Positions 19-38,300 of a stretch of 48,227 bases of DNA are shown here, one piece after another. Source of the stretch: a candidate division WOR-3 bacterium (GTDB lineage: Bacteria; SDB-A). The notes below the pieces were generated by a model. The model did not search any database, was not told the DNA's origin, and saw only the letters and a program-made list of their open reading frames with translations. The stretch covers positions 1 through 48,227 of the forward strand of contig JAFGSQ010000049.1 of the NCBI GenBank assembly GCA_016934535.1, given 5' to 3'. How positions within the stretch are numbered: the stretch's first letter is position 1; the number at the start of each line of letters is the position of its first letter. Made by a program: the position numbers and the translations under genes.

Positions 19-1962
19 TTATCTATTCCTGTCCGAATTCCTGTCTGTGCTCTGCCTCCTGTTGTTTTCCTCGCGGTCGTTCTGCGGAGGGCGCTGGTTT
101 TGCGGAGGATTGTTGTTCCTAGTGTCGTTGTTTGTTTCAGGCCTGGTGTTGTTGTTTGTCGGCGGTGTGTAGTTTCTCTGATTGTCGTTGGACTCGTTTC
201 TCTGGTTGTTGTTGGTCGGAGGATTGTTGTTCCTGGTGTCGTTGTTTGTTTCAGGCCTGGTGTTGTTGTTTGTCGGCGGTGTGTAGTTTCTCTGATCGTC
301 GTTGGACTCGTTACTCTGGTTGTTGTTCGTCGGAGGATTGTTGTTCCTTGTGTTGTTGGTTTCAGGTCTCGTGTTATTATTTGTCGGAGGGTTGTTGTTC
401 CTTGTGTCGCTGTTGGTTTCAGGTCTGGTGTTGCTGTTTGTCGGAGGATTTGTTCTCGTCGTCGGCTGTGTCGCAGTGACGCGCGAGTTGTTTTCCTGTG
501 GAGGAGTTCTCGTCGTTATGTCTCCCTGTCTGGGTGGTCTCATATCGGAGTTTACCGTTGGTGTTCTTTCGTTGACGGGACGGGAAGAAGTCAGAGATCC
601 GTTGTTTCTTGCAGTGAGATCGTTGCCTGATCTCGTATTTAGAGTCGGACTGCGGTCGTTCGGATTGGCAGGTGACCTGTTTTCTATATTCTCTCTGACC
701 GGTTCCAACTGTCTGCTGGAAATCTCGGGAATTTCTCTGACTGGAGTATTTGGGTTTACACTCGTCAAACGATCGTCCAGGGATGGATTTCTGCTTGAAA
801 TATCGGGACCTTCAGGCGATCTGACCATGCTTCCGCTGCTTATATCGGGGAAGTCAACAGGATCGTATGTTCGCGTCGGCTTGTCGCCGACAAAACCGTA
901 CAGAGGATCGTGGTATCTGTATCTCGGCCTGTAGAATGATTCATGAGAGACGCAAATCCACCAGTGGTCGTAATACCAAGGGTACCAATAATAATAAGGA
1001 TAAGGATACCATGCTATCCAGCCGGGTCCCCACCACCAGACCACTCTCGCAGGATACCATCTTGCGCCGGGAACCCAAATCCATCCCCAGCTGTTGGAAT
1101 AAACCCAATAGCCGTAATGATAGGTCCACCAGCCCCAGGGTTCATAGGAAACCCAGGTCCAACCCCAGGCTGACGTCCAGACCCATTCACCGTCGTAATA
1201 AGGCTTCCAGTTCACATGAGCAGGTTTGGGTTTCCAGCAATAACCGTGAGAAGAAACGTATATCCAGGTGCCGTTTTCATCCAGTGTCTGAGAACTGTTC
1301 TCTATGTTTTTGGGGACGTAAGCCCTACTGGGAGAACTCGCTGTTTCGTAAGTAGAGGATTTGTAAGGCAGAGAAGTTATTGATGAATTCTGAGGGACCG
1401 GTTTGGTCACGATTGAACCGATTCCAGTGGAATTTATGGTGACGCAATCACCGGCTTCGAGGAGTTTTTCCTCTCTTTTCGTCTTGTAAGCGCCCGAACC
1501 TTTGATCACTTCGGCTTCAATTTCACCTGCACTGTTGACATTGGCGCGAATCACACCGGAAGGAAACGAAGTTATTATTCCAACATCGGTTTCAAGATCG
1601 AGGTAACTTTTTGAGCTTTCGTCGGATGAAGAGAACATCTCAAATTCACCGAAATTTGCGTAAACTCTCGTCGAAAGAGAATTGTCGTCTTCGCTTTGAC
1701 CTGTGTGAATTATCAAACAGGAAGAATTTTCACCAATTCGTATAGTCGAACCGTCTTCGATGTCTATTTCGAGGTATCCGCTTTTCACATAAATTGAATC
1801 GCCGGATTCGACCGGAAGATTGACTATGCCGTATTCGGGATTGTCCGAATACGACTTCAATATTATCACTTCACCTGAAACCACGCTCATTCTCGCCGGT
1901 AATTGTCCGGAAATAAGTAAGGTTGGTAACAGGCATAAAATAATCGCAGAGAATATCTTCAT
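19..1962 (-). CDS. FecR-domain / DUF6600-like exported protein with Asn-rich repeat tail
   Basis: The function is unknown; the protein is probably exported to the envelope or surface. It has an N-terminal signal peptide (MKIFSAIILCLLPTLLISG). A FecR-like region follows over about residues 20-165, with 'GDSIYVKSGYLEIDIEDGSTIRIG' character split over two beta strands. At about 230-350 comes an extraordinarily Trp/Tyr/Pro-rich block that matches the DUF6600 pattern (repeated W-x-P-Y-x-x-G-x-W-x-W). The remaining roughly 270 residues are low-complexity Asn/Pro/Thr/Arg. I start it at the ATG at 1962 rather than 1980, because GGAGG sits just upstream of the 1962 ATG and this places the signal peptide at the N-terminus. 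FecR domains elsewhere act in signalling or sit in periplasmic proteins of unclear role. The tail is encoded by tandem DNA repeats, so its length may vary between strains. Confidence 0.8.
   Translation of the reverse strand: MKIFSAIILCLLPTLLISGQLPARMSVVSGEVIILKSYSDNPEYGIVNLPVESGDSIYVKSGYLEIDIEDGSTIRIGENSSCLIIHTGQSEDDNSLSTRVYANFGEFEMFSSSDESSKSYLDLETDVGIITSFPSGVIRANVNSAGEIEAEVIKGSGAYKTKREEKLLEAGDCVTINSTGIGSIVTKPVPQNSSITSLPYKSSTYETASSPSRAYVPKNIENSSQTLDENGTWIYVSSHGYCWKPKPAHVNWKPYYDGEWVWTSAWGWTWVSYEPWGWWTYHYGYWVYSNSWGWIWVPGARWYPARVVWWWGPGWIAWYPYPYYYWYPWYYDHWWICVSHESFYRPRYRYHDPLYGFVGDKPTRTYDPVDFPDISSGSMVRSPEGPDISSRNPSLDDRLTSVNPNTPVREIPEISSRQLEPVRENIENRSPANPNDRSPTLNTRSGNDLTARNNGSLTSSRPVNERTPTVNSDMRPPRQGDITTRTPPQENNSRVTATQPTTRTNPPTNSNTRPETNSDTRNNNPPTNNNTRPETNNTRNNNPPTNNNQSNESNDDQRNYTPPTNNNTRPETNNDTRNNNPPTNNNQRNESNDNQRNYTPPTNNNTRPETNNDTRNNNPPQNQRPPQNDREENNRRQSTDRNSDRNR
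104..331 (-). repeat. Two 114-bp tandem repeats within the FecR/DUF6600 gene
   Basis: Two directly adjacent, near-identical 114-bp units (104-217 and 218-331) encode 38-residue Asn/Pro/Thr-rich units. Shorter degenerate copies, starting again with GGAGG[A/G]TTGTTGTTCC, continue to about 450. The length is a multiple of three, so copy-number change would keep the reading frame. Confidence 0.85.
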
Positions 1963-1988
1963 TTGTCCTCCTTTTATCATCTGTCAAA

Positions 1989-15521: not shown

Positions 15522-17459
15522 ATGAAAATTCTGTCGTTTTTGATCTTCTTCATGACAGCGTTGTGTTTGAATTCGCAGGTTCCGGATGTATTAATAAATG
15601 AATTCGCTCCAAAAGGCACTGAATGGGTCGAACTCTACAACACTACATCAGACCCGATAGATTTGACAGGTTGGAAATTGACTTCTGCAGTTGACGGGGA
15701 TTCTTTCATGATAACCGGCACAATTGGCGCCAATTCTCTGTTTTTATGCAGTATATCGACAGCCATAATGGACAATGACGGGGATTCGGTCTTTCTTTAT
15801 AAACCCGGAGATACTCTGGTGGATCATGTCGCTTTCGGAGACGTTGGACCGGCGCCTGTTTCAATAACAACATGGTCAACGGCAAGAATAACTGACGGTT
15901 ATTGGTCGGGAAGCATGGCGCGGGATTTCAACATCGACGCCACGCCGACTCCTAACGCGCCGAATGACGCGAAACCAGCCCCGCTCGACGGCTATCTTAT
16001 TATTAATGAAATAGATCCCTTTCCAACTGCGGGCAACGATTCAATCGAGCTCCTCAACCTTTCTTTCACCGATACAATAAATACCTCGGGCTGGGTGATA
16101 TCTGACGGTGATGAAGTCGACACGCTCTTCGAGCACATAATTCCTCCGAGGTCGTTTCTCGTAATTGATGAAGCCGAATTCGGATTCGATTTCGCCGCTC
16201 AAGATGTTTGCTATCTTTTTTCGCCCGACACTTCGAGGCGGGATCAACTCGGTTGGGCAGGTGAGTATAACGATTTTTCAATCCAGAGAATACCGAACGG
16301 CGGCGGACCAAATGACGGTTACAACTGGGCATCATCTGGAGGCGGCACTTTCATTTTCGACACGACGGCCACTTGGGGTGCTCCGAACGGTTTCACAACC
16401 ATCACTTTGGATTTCCCCGCTGGAGGCGAAACTCTGTATTCAGGCGACACAGTTTCAATTTCGTGGACGGGTAATGCAATGGCTTACGATCTGTTTATAA
16501 GTTACGACGGCGGATTTAACTGGGAAATGGCAGGAGATTCGGTACTTTCATCTCCGCTTTTGTTTGAAATACCAAGAATCCCTTCGAATCAATGTCTTGT
16601 TTCCATTTTCAGCAATATAGACTATTTTTTTTCCGACACTACGGGCAGTTTTTTTTCGATTATAGACTCCCTCCCTTTCGGAGACACAATAGAGGTCTAT
16701 TACGATTCATCGGCGGCGACAGACTACTATCACTGGACTACAGCTGACTGCGGATCAGGCATGAGACTGACTGCGCCCCTTCAAAGGGGGCCGTTCAGAC
16801 TCATAGGTGCGAAATACATGCTTTCCGACGCTTCTGTCGGAAATAACATTTTCGACTGCAAAGTATTCCGGTGGGCAGGAACCGAACCGGGAACCGAAGA
16901 ATTTACTCAGAAAGACACTTTTCCTGTTCTCGGAACACCCCAATGGTATACAGTCGATGTAACTCATCAGGGAGTTACCCTGGAAACCGGTGAAGATTTC
17001 GTAGTCTGCATATTCTACGACGGAGTAAACCAGCCGGGTTGGGGATTTTACACCCAGACCAATGACAGAGCATGGGATTACGACGCTGGATGGTCTTTGT
17101 GGCCTTCTGAAATGTACTGCATTAGGGCTCTTCTCGCGGATATGAATGGCGTCGTTGAGGAGATAGGGGAGGGAATTGAAATCGATTTACCAAAATTATT
17201 CTTTTCTGAAGCACTTTTCGGCAACGGAACTTATATTTCGTACGCTTTGCCTGTTTCAGGCAGGGTCGTCATAAAAATTTTCGACGTCACGGGCAGAGAA
17301 GTGAGAACACTTCTGGACAGGTTCGAAGAGCCTGGATTGAGGCACATTCCCTTCGACGGCAGGGACGAAGAAGGATATCTTTTGTCGAAAGGTGTGTATT
17401 TCTGCAGAATGGAAAGCCCATCGGGGAACATGTCCTGTAAAATATCAATTGTCGAATAA
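15522..17459 (+). CDS. Secreted protein with two lamin-tail domains and a FlgD/T9SS-like C-terminal domain
   Basis: This 645-residue protein has a signal peptide (MKILSFLIFFMTALCLNSQ). Two lamin-tail domains follow, each with the marker 'INEF/INEID...WVELYN/SIELLN...L-x-GW' (residues about 24-145 and 160-275). A middle beta region is next. The C-terminus is the FlgD-Ig/T9SS type A-like domain, 'GRVVIKIFDVTGREVRTLLDRF...LSKGVYFCRMES'. Lamin-tail domains in bacteria occur in surface or secreted proteins, often with nucleases, but no nuclease motif is visible. A role in the cell envelope or matrix is an inference. Its neighbour downstream is a paralogue. Confidence 0.8.
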   Translation: MKILSFLIFFMTALCLNSQVPDVLINEFAPKGTEWVELYNTTSDPIDLTGWKLTSAVDGDSFMITGTIGANSLFLCSISTAIMDNDGDSVFLYKPGDTLVDHVAFGDVGPAPVSITTWSTARITDGYWSGSMARDFNIDATPTPNAPNDAKPAPLDGYLIINEIDPFPTAGNDSIELLNLSFTDTINTSGWVISDGDEVDTLFEHIIPPRSFLVIDEAEFGFDFAAQDVCYLFSPDTSRRDQLGWAGEYNDFSIQRIPNGGGPNDGYNWASSGGGTFIFDTTATWGAPNGFTTITLDFPAGGETLYSGDTVSISWTGNAMAYDLFISYDGGFNWEMAGDSVLSSPLLFEIPRIPSNQCLVSIFSNIDYFFSDTTGSFFSIIDSLPFGDTIEVYYDSSAATDYYHWTTADCGSGMRLTAPLQRGPFRLIGAKYMLSDASVGNNIFDCKVFRWAGTEPGTEEFTQKDTFPVLGTPQWYTVDVTHQGVTLETGEDFVVCIFYDGVNQPGWGFYTQTNDRAWDYDAGWSLWPSEMYCIRALLADMNGVVEEIGEGIEIDLPKLFFSEALFGNGTYISYALPVSGRVVIKIFDVTGREVRTLLDRFEEPGLRHIPFDGRDEEGYLLSKGVYFCRMESPSGNMSCKISIVE

Positions 17460-17473
17460 ACACGGAGGAATAT

Positions 17474-18676
17474 ATGAAAATCATTAATTTCGCTTTTCTT
17501 ATCCTTTTTGCGACTGTTATTTCGGCTCAGATTCCTCAGGTTGTAATAAACGAGTTCGCTGCCAAAGCCAATCCGGAATGGATTGAAATTTACAATACAA
17601 CCTCTTCGCCCATAGATCTTTCCGGTTGGTGTTTGATAAACACTCCGAACGACACTACTTTTCTTTCAGGAACGCTGGCCGGAAATGCTTATATGCTCGT
17701 TACACTTTCTTCATCTCAACTAAGTAACGACGGAGATATTATATCGCTTGCAAATTCTGCAGGAGACACTGTTGACTACGCAGGATACGGGACGAGAGGT
17801 CCTGCTCCTGTCGGTATATACAATTCAAACAATCCCGCCTTCAGCACTGCAAGAATAACTGACGGCTGTTACACTTCTCCAAACAACGGCCGAGATTTCA
17901 ACATAGACGGAACTCCGACACCGGGAACGGCGAACGATGCTCATCCGGCGCCTCTGAATGCTCAGGTTTCAATAAACGAACTGGACCCTTATGGGGGGAC
18001 TACTGTTTACGATTCTGTTGAATTGTTCAACTCTACCTCTTCCGACATAGATGTTGGCGGCTGGTTTATCTCCGACGGAGACGACTTTAAAGTTATTACA
18101 GGAACTCAGATAGTTCCCGCGAACGGATTTCTTGTTATAGACTCAAGCGATTTCAGCGGCGTCAATTTTACGAACGTCGATGTATGTTATCTCTTTATGG
18201 CCGACACGCAGAGAGTTGATCAACTTGGATGGTACAGCGATTCAAGCGAATATACATATCAACGTGTACCTGACGGCGGAGGTCCTCACGACGGATATAA
18301 CTGGGTAACCTCGGGAGGCGGAACCACGCTTTTCGACAAGATAGAAACCTGGGGCGAAACGAACGGAACTGTTCACGTCGTCGAAGAAACACCTGATGCA
18401 GTATTTCCCGAAGGATACTTCCTTGCCTGCCCATCTCTTTCAGGAAGAGGCGGAATTGAAGTGTCTTTTATGGCTCCCGGAGATTTTACCCTCGGAGTGT
18501 ATTCTCTGGACGGAAGACTTGTGAAAGAAATGTTTACCGGCAGAACCGAAAACCGATCATATTTAACATGGGATTTAAGCGACAGTGAAGGCAGACCGGT
18601 ATCACAGGGTCATTACATTTTGATGTTGTCCGACGACGATCAAAGAATATCTATTAAACTCGAAGTTATATACTGA
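17474..18676 (+). CDS. Secreted lamin-tail protein, paralogue of the preceding gene
   Basis: This 400-residue protein repeats the design of its neighbour: a signal peptide ending SAQ, two lamin-tail domains ('INEFAAKANPEWIEIYNTTSSPIDLSGW' and 'INELDPYGGTTVYDSVELFNSTSSDIDVGGW'), and a short C-terminal FlgD-like domain ('FTLGVYSLDGRLVKEMF...SQGHYILMLS'). It lacks the roughly 250-residue middle section of the larger paralogue. The gap between the two genes is 14 nt with a GGAGG. The pair looks like a tandem duplication followed by divergence. The gene ends just before a strong hairpin. Confidence 0.8.
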   Translation: MKIINFAFLILFATVISAQIPQVVINEFAAKANPEWIEIYNTTSSPIDLSGWCLINTPNDTTFLSGTLAGNAYMLVTLSSSQLSNDGDIISLANSAGDTVDYAGYGTRGPAPVGIYNSNNPAFSTARITDGCYTSPNNGRDFNIDGTPTPGTANDAHPAPLNAQVSINELDPYGGTTVYDSVELFNSTSSDIDVGGWFISDGDDFKVITGTQIVPANGFLVIDSSDFSGVNFTNVDVCYLFMADTQRVDQLGWYSDSSEYTYQRVPDGGGPHDGYNWVTSGGGTTLFDKIETWGETNGTVHVVEETPDAVFPEGYFLACPSLSGRGGIEVSFMAPGDFTLGVYSLDGRLVKEMFTGRTENRSYLTWDLSDSEGRPVSQGHYILMLSDDDQRISIKLEVIY

Positions 18677-25289: not shown

Positions 25290-25300
25290 AGGAGATGAAA

Positions 25301-27259
25301 ATGCAATTCATTATTTTCGCTCTATTGATTTCTGCCGGATATAATGGCGCGTTTTTTCTGCATGATGTATTTTCAGAGGCTTTGGATAGATGCAGATTTC
25401 TGAAAACCGGAATATACGCTGACGAAGAATCCATAGGGATACCAATGATACCGAGCGGATTTCATGCATCATCTTGCGATCAGATCACATTGAGTGAAGA
25501 AACGTTTTCTATAAAAGCTCCCGAAACCTATTATCTCACCGACACTCTCGTAATAACGAGTGACACTTCAATAAACGAGGACATAATAATTTTTCAAAAC
25601 GGTCTGCTTGTTGTCAGTTCGTGTTCGCTCAGAATGAGAGGAGACATCGTACTATCTGACGAAGGCATGATGAAGCTCGATAATGCCGTGTTTTTTCTCG
25701 ACGAATCATACGTGTATCAGTATTCGATAAATTCATACGGGAATTCGTCTTTTGAGGCAGAACATTCAACTCTGAGGTCCAATTCGAAACCCTTTGGATT
25801 CTCACTTTATGACAGCTCATCCACCGTTTTCGACTCTGTACGCATGGACAAGTCATTCATCACTTTTTCATTGACCGGCAAATCTGCGATCGAAATAAAA
25901 GATTCTGACAAAGCCGGCGAATTCGTCCTGTTCACTGAGGATTCTGCTGAACTCAGGATCAAAAATTCCGATTCAGTCCTCGTATGGCTCGGATTTCCGA
26001 TAAATTCATCCGGAACCGTCAGGGGACCTCATTCCCCTTCGATGTTCATAGAGCATTTCAGATATCCGGATACTTCCTGTTCAGGGATAAATTATTCCGT
26101 AGAGATTGACAGTGTCTTTGCACTGTTTTTGGCGACAATGGCCTGCGACAGCACAAACGTTATAGTTTTCGACGTCGATCTCAGGGCGGTAGGGTCTCTT
26201 TTCACTGGGCAGGTCAGCGACACGTTGTCCGGTTTTGTAGACAACACCCATTACGTCGATTTCACGGCGCCTTTTCCAGGAAGGTCTTACAGGCTTGTAA
26301 ATACGAGTGTTCAGTCCTGGAATTTCTATTTCTGGGGGAGACACGACGTGACGCTCAAAAACTCGATTTTCGGAGAATTTCTCTGCGGAGACAGTTCAGT
26401 CGCTTTTTTGAGCAACGTAATCTGCGATGGTTCCGGGGGCCATATAGGAAACGCAGATTCTTCTTTTCTCATATGTGCCCTTTCAAGCTTCTACACAGAC
26501 GCGCTTCTCGAAGGGAAATCTTTATCTCTTTTCTACAATGCCAATTTCTTCTACGGCAGGGTGATAGCCGCAGACAGGTCGCTAGCCATAAGTTACAACA
26601 CAGCGCATTCGACTGCTCCTTTCGCGGAAGATTCCGGGGCGGTATTGATCGCCGGATTTTATCCTCCGGACCCGTGCTGTTCAAACGATTCTGTTCCTAT
26701 ACCCGGCAGTGCATACTGCGTCAGAGCGCCTTTTTCGCCATTCAATTTTGCGGGTTACCGCATTGAATATGCACCTCTGGCAGACACTTTCGAGTTTTTT
26801 GAAGTATCTCCATTCACGGCAAATCCGGTTGTCAACGGCGAGCTTTGTGTTTTCAATACATCCGGGCTCAGCGCCGGTTCATATCTTCTCAGAATGTGGT
26901 ATTTATTCACGGGATACTCCTACTCTGACAGTATGCCGTTCACGGAAGATATCGAAATCATTGAAGGGACAGGCACTGAAGAACTCAAAGATACTGAACC
27001 CCCGAAGATTTTTTCCGTGTCCTGTCTACGTGGCGCGATTCAAATCGATTTTCAGCTCTTGTATCCGGAAGAAGTAGGATTTATTATATTCGACGCCGCA
27101 GGCAGAAAGGTTCTGGAAAAGGAAAAAAGATACTTCTCTTTGGGTCGACACAGTGAAAGGTTGATGACGGAAAGATTTTCGAGCGGAATCTATTTTGTCT
27201 CGATCTCTTTTAGCGGGACGAAACTCTTGACTGAGAAAATACTTTTGTTTGATAATTGA
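25301..27259 (+). CDS. Large secreted protein with FlgD/T9SS-like C-terminal domain
   Basis: This protein of about 652 residues is of unknown function. It has a short N-terminal signal (MQFIIFALLISAGYNGAFF), then about 450 residues of beta-solenoid-like repeats rich in Ser/Asp, such as 'NGLLVVSSCSLRMRGDIVLSDEGMMKLDNAVFFLD'. It ends in a C-terminal domain 'EEVGFIIFDAAGRKVLEKEKRYFSLGRHSERLMTERFSSGIYFVSI'. I use the ATG at 25301, 6 nt after GGAG; an in-frame ATG at 25295 touches the ribosome-binding site. The solenoid suggests a surface or adhesin-like protein. This is an inference from repeat character. Confidence 0.7.
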   Translation: MQFIIFALLISAGYNGAFFLHDVFSEALDRCRFLKTGIYADEESIGIPMIPSGFHASSCDQITLSEETFSIKAPETYYLTDTLVITSDTSINEDIIIFQNGLLVVSSCSLRMRGDIVLSDEGMMKLDNAVFFLDESYVYQYSINSYGNSSFEAEHSTLRSNSKPFGFSLYDSSSTVFDSVRMDKSFITFSLTGKSAIEIKDSDKAGEFVLFTEDSAELRIKNSDSVLVWLGFPINSSGTVRGPHSPSMFIEHFRYPDTSCSGINYSVEIDSVFALFLATMACDSTNVIVFDVDLRAVGSLFTGQVSDTLSGFVDNTHYVDFTAPFPGRSYRLVNTSVQSWNFYFWGRHDVTLKNSIFGEFLCGDSSVAFLSNVICDGSGGHIGNADSSFLICALSSFYTDALLEGKSLSLFYNANFFYGRVIAADRSLAISYNTAHSTAPFAEDSGAVLIAGFYPPDPCCSNDSVPIPGSAYCVRAPFSPFNFAGYRIEYAPLADTFEFFEVSPFTANPVVNGELCVFNTSGLSAGSYLLRMWYLFTGYSYSDSMPFTEDIEIIEGTGTEELKDTEPPKIFSVSCLRGAIQIDFQLLYPEEVGFIIFDAAGRKVLEKEKRYFSLGRHSERLMTERFSSGIYFVSISFSGTKLLTEKILLFDN

Positions 27260-37200: not shown

Positions 37201-37222
37201 ATGGCACGGACCACCGTGCCAT
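37201..37222 (-). terminator. Terminator hairpin after the Omp28-like selenoprotein gene
   Basis: ATGGCACGG and CCGTGCCAT form a perfect 9-bp stem with a 4-nt loop, 4 nt after the TAA of the minus-strand gene. It is flanked by A/T runs that extend the stem. The T-run is stronger on the plus strand (TTTTTTT); on the minus strand TTTCTCCTTC follows. Confidence 0.65.
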
Positions 37223-37226
37223 TTTT

Positions 37227-38276
37227 TTATATCATTTTAGCTACGATTTTCGAGATTCTCTTGCCTTCACATGCAAGTTCTATTCTGTACATTCCCGCAG
37301 AAAGTTCTTTTCCGGATTCGTCCCTTCCGTCCCAGCTAAGAATATGATTTTCAATGAAAAGATCGCCGGAAGAAAATCTCCTGACTGCTCTGCCGGTCAT
37401 GTCATAGACAGTCACCGTGACATTTGCAGAGTTTTCAGCGTAGACCGGAAGAAATAGAACTGATGCAAAAGGGTTAGGATAGGGATTGCCGAGGTTAAGG
37501 AGAATGGGACCGTTGTTGGGAGTTTCTTCAACTCCTACAAAACCGGATATGTCTATATTTTCGCTCTGATGAATTTGCTTGTCTGAAACAGTGAATGTCT
37601 GGAGGCATACTATAAAATAGACGTCGTCAGGTTCGAAATTCCACCAGGAGGAGGAAAATGTGAAAGGGATATCGATCAAAAGTGTTTCAGGATAAATACC
37701 GGAAAAAGTAATTGGAGTTCCGTTGAAATCCGGGAACATCTTTCTCGCCGGTCTGTGAAATTCTGAAAAAATCCCCCAACTGTGCGGAACCAGATGTGAA
37801 ACGGCTGCGATATAAAGATAGTAAGGGGGAGCGCCAAGATCCTGTTCTGCAATGATTGTCACGTTTAGAATTCCCGACATGAGATCTGGTTCAGCTGTTC
37901 CTTCAAGGAATAAAGTCACGTAACAGGACTCTGCCATGGCTCTCGAATAAGCCAGGTTCAGGGCTGAAAGAGAAGTCGGGGAAAACAGGGGGCATCCGTC
38001 CATACTTGCTACAGGTATGTAAGAGCCTCCGTAAAACTGGAATCTTCCCCAGGCGTCCGGGTTGAAAAGGGGTTCGCCGGATTCTACCTGGTACTTTAAA
38101 GCGCTCAGGCTTTCCTGATTGTCTTCAATGAACGTGTTCTGCAGTCCTGCAGAAGTTGCGCAGTCAATTCAAGTGGCTCCGCTGAATATTTCAAGCAGAG
38201 GTTTTCTTACGGCACTGAACAGCGAAACAGCCAAAAGCATATAAACGATGAAAAGAAAAAAACGCTTGGCAATCAC
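37227..38276 (-). CDS. Putative exported selenoprotein: Omp28/thioredoxin-like with UxxC motif and T9SS-like C-terminal domain
   Basis: Read from GTG at 38276 (AAGGAGG 4 nt upstream), the frame gives a signal peptide (VIAKRFFLFIVYMLLAVSLFSA) and then 'KPLLEIFSGAT-[TGA]-IDC'. It continues without another stop for 349 codons to a TAA. Omp28-related and thioredoxin-like proteins have CxxC at this place; here TGA at codon 36 takes the first Cys and Cys39 is the second. Downstream, 'NPDAWGRFQFYGGSYIPVASMDG' matches the cis-Pro loop of the fold. A FlgD/T9SS-like C-terminal domain ('VTVTVYDMTGRAVRRF...SAGMYRIEL') ends the protein. A SECIS-like hairpin follows the TGA. The likely role is an exported thiol/selenol oxidoreductase. 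A recent nonsense mutation remains possible. Confidence 0.75.
38137..38154 (-). promoter_or_regulatory. Putative bacterial SECIS element
   Basis: On the minus strand, TTCTGCA-GGAC-TGCAGAA forms a perfect 7-bp stem with a 4-nt GGAC loop that starts 21 nt after the in-frame TGA. Bacterial SECIS hairpins lie within the coding region about 16-37 nt after UGA, with a G among the first loop bases. The core TGCA-GGAC-TGCA differs by one base from the TGCA-GGTC-TGCA core of the E. coli fdhF SECIS as remembered. Confidence 0.7.
38169..38171 (-). other. In-frame TGA, putative selenocysteine codon
   Basis: Codon 36 of the Omp28-like gene. It occupies the first Cys position of a CxxC motif (context A-T-U-I-D-C). 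It is the only stop codon in 350 codons of the frame. Confidence 0.72.
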
Positions 38277-38300
38277 TTTTCCTCCTTATTATACCTTGTA

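What the first reader, a model, noticed from the sequence alone, without database searches (positions are those of the whole stretch)
37227..38276. Undescribed exported selenoprotein: Omp28/thioredoxin-like UxxC protein hidden behind an in-frame TGA
Seen: a frame of 350 codons with a GTG start, AAGGAGG and signal peptide, interrupted only by TGA at codon 36. The TGA falls where the first Cys of a CxxC motif is expected (T-U-I-D-C). The downstream 'GGSYIPVASMDG' cis-Pro loop supports a thioredoxin fold. The protein ends in a T9SS/FlgD-like domain. Known: Sec usually replaces catalytic Cys in redox motifs. Inferred: an exported selenol/thiol oxidoreductase. Gene callers would keep only residues 92-349.
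Basis: partly seen in the sequence, partly recalled or inferred. Interest (0 to 1): 0.92.

Follow-up and report, generated by a model that had tools for sequence, protein, structure and literature searches.

The report
Surface-exported Omp28-like selenoprotein with UxxC motif
A gene in a poorly known bacterium of the candidate division WOR-3 lineage reads a TGA "stop" as the rare amino acid selenocysteine, making a thioredoxin-like redox protein that is probably displayed outside the cell; it is a divergent, unannotated branch of a little-known selenoprotein family that proves more widespread than its current model shows.

Summary
On the MINUS strand, 37227-38276 encodes 349 residues broken only by TGA at codon 36, in T-U-I-D-C. 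Four lines show this TGA is selenocysteine. (1) The same genome carries selA, selB, a selenocysteine-type selD and a UCA tRNA-Sec. (2) Two paralogues in this genome and homologues in three relatives, one at a syntenic locus, carry TGA at exactly this position; other paralogues carry Cys (CxxC). (3) A hairpin fitting the bacterial SECIS model follows the TGA and is absent from close Cys homologues. (4) Coding constraint runs on both sides of the TGA, and TGA is an ordinary stop elsewhere. The protein is signal peptide, thioredoxin domain, beta-sandwich, T9SS-type sorting domain; closest solved structure is HBP35, a T9SS-exported thioredoxin of Porphyromonas. This genome encodes the T9SS translocon SprA and sortase PorU. 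Most likely it is a surface or secreted selenol/thiol-disulfide oxidoreductase. "Undescribed" needs correcting: it is a divergent relative of the known Omp28-related selenoproteins (GOS_C, NF045500), whose model does not detect it. Twenty-five further TGA members turned up in 386 sampled genomes; no hit in a 290-genome scan reached that model's cut-off. New variant of a known kind.

The parts
37227..38276 (-). Selenoprotein gene, GTG start to TAA stop, 349 residues with Sec at codon 36
   Evidence: paralogues and orthologues with TGA at the same column
38281..38287 (-). AAGGAGG ribosome binding site, 4 nt before the GTG
   Evidence: sequence
38211..38276 (-). Signal peptide, codons 1-22
   Evidence: K/R n-region, hydrophobic core, LFSA end by inspection; AF2 helix 2-20
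38169..38171 (-). TGA codon 36, read as selenocysteine (UIDC motif)
   Evidence: Cys in paralogues L004, L045, L046
38137..38154 (-). SECIS hairpin UUCUGCA-GGAC-UGCAGAA; loop 38144-38147, 21 nt after the TGA
   Evidence: 7 bp, -7.4 kcal/mol against -1.1 mean of shuffles; centroid fold is this hairpin; one compensatory pair among 7 sequences
37929..38207 (-). Thioredoxin-like domain, codons 24-116, Sec36/Cys39 at the start of helix 37-52, Pro88 loop
   Evidence: AF2 model pLDDT 84.5; alignment
37551..37919 (-). Beta-sandwich (Omp28-type) domain, codons 120-242
   Evidence: AF2; hhalign to Omp28-like Sec proteins over residues 3-249
37236..37499 (-). C-terminal T9SS type A / FlgD-Ig sorting domain, codons 260-347
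   Evidence: TIGR04183 31.4 bits (cut-off 23), PF13860 35.7 bits (cut-off 27); AF2
37201..37222 (.). Inverted repeat ATGGCACGG-ACCA-CCGTGCCAT just after the stop; possible terminator, gene probably monocistronic
   Evidence: sequence; not tested against chance

Best explanation
A genuine selenoprotein gene. SelB with Sec-tRNA decodes UGA-36 with the help of a hairpin 14 nt downstream, giving a protein with a Sec-pathway signal peptide, a thioredoxin-like domain carrying U-I-D-C, an Omp28-type beta-sandwich and a T9SS sorting domain. After export across the inner membrane and T9SS passage it most likely acts on the cell surface or outside as a selenol/thiol-disulfide oxidoreductase: Sec36 attacks a disulfide (or peroxide) and Cys39 resolves the selenenylsulfide. 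Shown by comparative sequence: Sec decoding, fold, presence of T9SS. Inferred: actual secretion, electron donor (a DsbD/CcdA-type membrane protein is encoded) and substrate.
For: Machinery in the same genome: selA 505 bits, selB 309 bits, both over cut-off and adjacent; selD 361 bits with its own in-frame TGA in the catalytic GUAAK motif; tRNA-Sec with UCA anticodon spanning two contig ends next to selA. TGA at the same column in 2 paralogues of this subfamily, in G001-G003, and at the CxxC position in a fourth, more distant member in this genome. Cys at that column in paralogues, all CxxC. Profile search: 25 further TGA members with TGA in UxxC. SECIS-like hairpins: 34 Sec forms median -7.0 kcal/mol against -2.3 shuffled; 26 Cys forms -0.25; p 4e-8. 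selB over cut-off in 24/24 genomes with Sec members against 15/29 with Cys only, p 6e-5. dN well below dS in codons 22-91, spanning the TGA. Fold: AF2 pLDDT 84.5; best PDB match HBP35 5y1a, E 2.5e-12, also found by sequence profile, with Omp28 2r2c. T9SS: SprA 339 bits (cut-off 200), PorU 479 bits (cut-off 420). DsbD_TM/CcdA-like protein.
Against: No protein or reads were examined. SECIS stems are weak (4 bp) in the L003, L026 and L054 sequences, and only one compensatory pair supports the structure in the close clade. The genome is a 76-contig assembly with estimated 3.9% contamination, though selB is also over cut-off in the three close relatives. The HBP35 match has TM-score 0.52 and 12% identity, so the function transfer is loose. 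No redox partner gene lies beside it.
Confidence: 0.83

Rival explanations
1. Selenoprotein, but it stays in the periplasm or outer membrane and acts as a disulfide isomerase or peroxidase there; the C-terminal Ig domain is structural, not a sorting signal.
For: FlgD_ig scores higher than the T9SS model in Pfam (35.7 over cut-off against 26.9, just under the cut-off 27). Many Sec members in other genomes lack a detected sorting domain, although most were scanned only over the N-terminal 250-340 residues.
Against: TIGR04183 is over its cut-off, the T9SS translocon and sortase are encoded, and the closest structure is the T9SS cargo HBP35 (PMC3120885).
Confidence: 0.3
2. The TGA is a true stop: decaying pseudogene, or a sequencing error, with the downstream 258-residue ORF at most reinitiated.
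For: Standard gene calling yields only the 258-residue ORF.
Against: TGA conserved in several paralogues and independent assemblies; dN well below dS on both sides; no ribosome binding site before Met92; complete Sec machinery.
Confidence: 0.02
3. TGA is reassigned genome-wide to another amino acid.
For: An in-frame TGA in a conserved frame.
Against: TGA ends 29 of 41 plausible window genes while TGG is used 149 times; TGA falls at the CxxC cysteine position, followed by a SECIS hairpin.
Confidence: 0.01

Closest known systems
Omp28-related selenoprotein, NCBIfam NF045500 = hypothetical protein GOS_C (PMC2398784, PMC13188914)
   Same: Thioredoxin-like fold, UxxC, Cys homologues, SECIS hairpin; Cys paralogues of this subfamily match the model weakly (E 6e-8 and 4e-5), and the subfamily aligns by profile with TGA members most of which do match it
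   Different: The window protein gives no match to the model; T9SS-type C-terminal domain; its close relatives were found only in WOR-3-lineage genomes
HBP35 of Porphyromonas gingivalis (PDB 5y1a)
   Same: Thioredoxin domain followed by a C-terminal sorting domain; best structural match. Reported thioredoxin activity needing both cysteines (PMC2907840) and T9SS-dependent surface export (PMC3120885)
   Different: Cys, not Sec; 12% identity; HBP35 also binds hemin, untested here
Omp28 (Pfam PF11551; PDB 2r2c)
   Same: The family profile finds 2r2c (E 1e-4); 19 of 33 Sec members match PF11551, including the distant member in this genome
   Different: The window protein itself does not match PF11551

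Membership tests
Bacterial selenoprotein | selA, selB, selC and selD in the genome | tested here: met
Bacterial selenoprotein | TGA aligned with Cys in homologues and with TGA in other homologues | tested here: met
Bacterial selenoprotein | bSECIS: loop 3-9 nt, stem 4-16 bp, G in the first two loop positions, 16-37 nt from UGA, MFE at most -7.5 (model in PMC13188914) | tested here: met
   loop GGAC, 7 bp, 21 nt; hairpin alone -7.4, 62-nt MFE -10.2 kcal/mol; energy borderline, and the 62-nt fold as a whole is no better than shuffles (z -0.06)
Bacterial selenoprotein | Selenium in the protein | not testable with these tools
   needs 75Se labelling or mass spectrometry
NF045500 Omp28-related selenoprotein (GOS_C) | Score over the curated cut-off of 200 bits | tested here: not met
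   no match for the window protein; none of 290 genomes reaches the cut-off
NF045500 Omp28-related selenoprotein (GOS_C) | Thioredoxin fold with UxxC | tested here: met
Omp28 (PF11551) | Pfam gathering score | tested here: not met
   met by the paralogue L019:3107-4138
T9SS cargo | T9SS type A sorting domain over cut-off (TIGR04183) | tested here: met
   31.4 bits against 23; PF18962 26.9 against 27
T9SS cargo | T9SS in the genome | tested here: met
   SprA 339 bits, PorU 479 bits, both over cut-off; other components not searched
T9SS cargo | T9SS-dependent export | not testable with these tools
   needs experiment

The most novel reading that the evidence does not exclude
A class of selenoproteins delivered by a type IX secretion system to the cell surface or medium, multiplied to at least four Omp28-type selenoprotein genes in one 2.2-Mb genome, so that the bacterium does selenium-based redox chemistry outside its outer membrane.
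Probability: 0.6. Interest if true: 0.68.

Novelty: new variant of a known kind. Interest (0 to 1): 0.55.

Why it matters
The gene is truncated by standard annotation, and the existing family model misses it and its close relatives, so this exported selenoprotein family is undercounted. At least 25 more TGA members surfaced in a modest genome sample, with apparent repeated switches between Sec and Cys (12 changes on the tree, at least 5 forced by well-supported branches), which makes it useful for asking when selenocysteine is kept or lost. A T9SS-exported selenoprotein would put selenium chemistry at the cell surface; the search of the held papers found none described.

Tried and rejected
Rfam scan of the region: no SECIS family match. 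ARAGORN missed tRNA-Sec because it lies across contig ends; the covariance model and direct reading found it. Full-length protein searches were swamped by the common sorting domain, so an N-domain profile was used. Minimum-energy folding of fixed 62-nt windows was not discriminating for several sequences, so hairpins were scored within the published bSECIS geometry, with shuffles and Cys homologues as controls. Foldseek matches to transglutaminases and arrestins are beta-sandwich similarity only. The single genome-contig scan found only one relative, the WOR-3 orthologue. Literature searches for Omp28 with selenoprotein, and for T9SS with secreted selenoprotein, found no description.

Full report
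OBSERVATION. The frame lies on the minus strand. From GTG 38276, preceded by AAGGAGG, it runs 349 codons to TAA 37229-37227 with one interruption, TGA at codon 36, within LLEIFSGAT-U-IDC. Ordinary calling gives only the 258-residue ORF from Met92, and no ribosome binding site precedes that ATG.

SELENOCYSTEINE MACHINERY. The window's own genome (G000, 2.23 Mb, 76 contigs) encodes SelA (TIGR00474, 505 bits) and SelB (TIGR00475, 309 bits), adjacent on contig C53. SelD (361 bits) is itself of the selenocysteine type, with TGA in FSEKAG-U-AAK. A tRNA-Sec with TCA anticodon lies across the ends of contigs C71 and C53, just before selA; only the covariance model and reading by eye found it. TGA terminates 29 of 41 plausible window genes, so it is not reassigned.

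HOMOLOGUES. Two paralogues in the same genome have exactly one TGA, at the same column: SGAF-U-SGC (L002) and GASQ-U-TYC (L003). A third paralogue has NHT-C-SFC (L004). A further family member in this genome, 20% identical to the window protein, has SHT-U-PSC (L019:3107-4138). Relatives G001, G002 and G003 carry TGA members at 46-58% identity as well as, in G001 and G003, Cys members. One TGA member, on JAFGIG010000101.1 of a candidate division WOR-3 bacterium, lies at a syntenic locus in which the flanking ABC and MFS transporter genes are 71-76% identical and this gene about 56%. Codons 22-91, largely dropped by gene callers, show dN 0.24-0.45 with dS above 1 or saturated.

SECIS. The window mRNA has UUCUGCA-GGAC-UGCAGAA 14 nt after the UGA, loop at 21 nt, within the published bacterial model. 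In its clade the loop is always at the same distance and usually GGUC. The closing pair A-U becomes U-A in three sequences, with an accompanying Leu-to-Gln change. Over 34 Sec forms the best model-conforming hairpin has median -7.0 kcal/mol against -2.3 for shuffles; over 26 Cys forms it is -0.25 against -1.6 (p 4e-8). Weakness: three sequences have only 4 bp, and the energy of the whole 62-nt segment is not exceptional.

WIDER FAMILY. A profile of the N-terminal domains (A2) searched in 386 genomes matched 51. Twenty-five further members were read with TGA at the motif. In one of them, L080, the TGA sits two codons after an aligned Cys (CGUAAC). Profile-profile comparison of the window clade with these distant members gives probability 100%, E 9e-41 over residues 3-249. 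selB is over cut-off in 24 of 24 genomes with TGA members and in 15 of 29 with only Cys members (Fisher p 6e-5). The window clade is all Sec (SH-aLRT 96) with Cys paralogues outside it; the family tree needs 12 Sec/Cys changes, at least 5 forced by starred branches (quick tree, direction unknown).

STRUCTURE AND LOCATION. AlphaFold2 on A1: mean pLDDT 84.5. Thioredoxin order E27-32, H37-52, E58-63, H73-81, E89-92, H103-115, with U36 just before the first core helix and Pro88 just before the strand at 89-92; then a beta-sandwich and a C-terminal Ig domain. The best Foldseek match is HBP35 (5y1a, E 2.5e-12, TM 0.52). A profile search of PDB sequences finds HBP35 (6e-7) and Omp28 2r2c (1e-4). HBP35 has reported thioredoxin activity dependent on its two cysteines (PMC2907840) and is exported by the Por/T9SS system (PMC3120885). 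The window protein carries a T9SS type A sorting domain, and this genome encodes SprA (TIGR04189, 339 bits) and PorU (NF033707, 479 bits), both over cut-off. A DsbD/CcdA-type membrane protein could supply electrons to the periplasm.

MECHANISM. Shown by comparison: Sec decoding, fold, UxxC, T9SS in the genome. Inferred: export to the surface, selenol attack by Sec36 with Cys39 resolving, and the substrate.

KNOWN OR NEW. Omp28-related selenoproteins are known: GOS_C, 74 marine sequences, described as Trx-like with UxxC (PMC2398784), modelled as NF045500. The window protein gives no match to that model; its Cys paralogues match weakly; 25 of 33 Sec members match at E below 1e-3, but nothing in 290 genomes reaches the cut-off. 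So this is a new, divergent branch with a T9SS-type end: a new variant of a known kind.

VERDICT. Observation confirmed; selenoprotein reading strongly supported; 'undescribed' only at the level of the subfamily and its T9SS-type architecture.

Noticed in passing
L019:3107-4138 (G000 contig C32): Another selenoprotein gene in the same genome, SHT-U-PSC, from a different Omp28 subfamily; it lies about 4 kb from L002 on the same contig.
   Followed up: partly
L002 (end of C32), L003 and L006 (C38): Two Sec paralogues are probably in tandem; nearly identical C-terminal parts seem to have broken the assembly between C32 and C38.
   Followed up: partly
G000 C71:3-82 and C53:1-75 (L009, L010): The tRNA-Sec gene is split by a contig break right before selA-selB and is missed by ARAGORN.
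   Followed up: yes
L080 (G137:C176): Variant motif C-G-U-A-A-C: the TGA sits two codons after the usual first Cys column, or after a two-residue insertion.
   Followed up: no
L090 (G107:C186:36500-46500): Cluster of four related Omp28-like genes side by side, two with TGA/UxxC and at least one with Cys.
   Followed up: partly
window 15522-18676 and 25295-27259, + strand: Further proteins that look by eye to end in T9SS/FlgD-like domains; many such C-terminal domains in this genome, plus nine over-cut-off C25 (gingipain-type) peptidases.
   Followed up: no
window 19-1980, - strand: Protein with an aromatic-rich middle (repeated W/Y) and a long N/T/R/P repeat tail.
   Followed up: no
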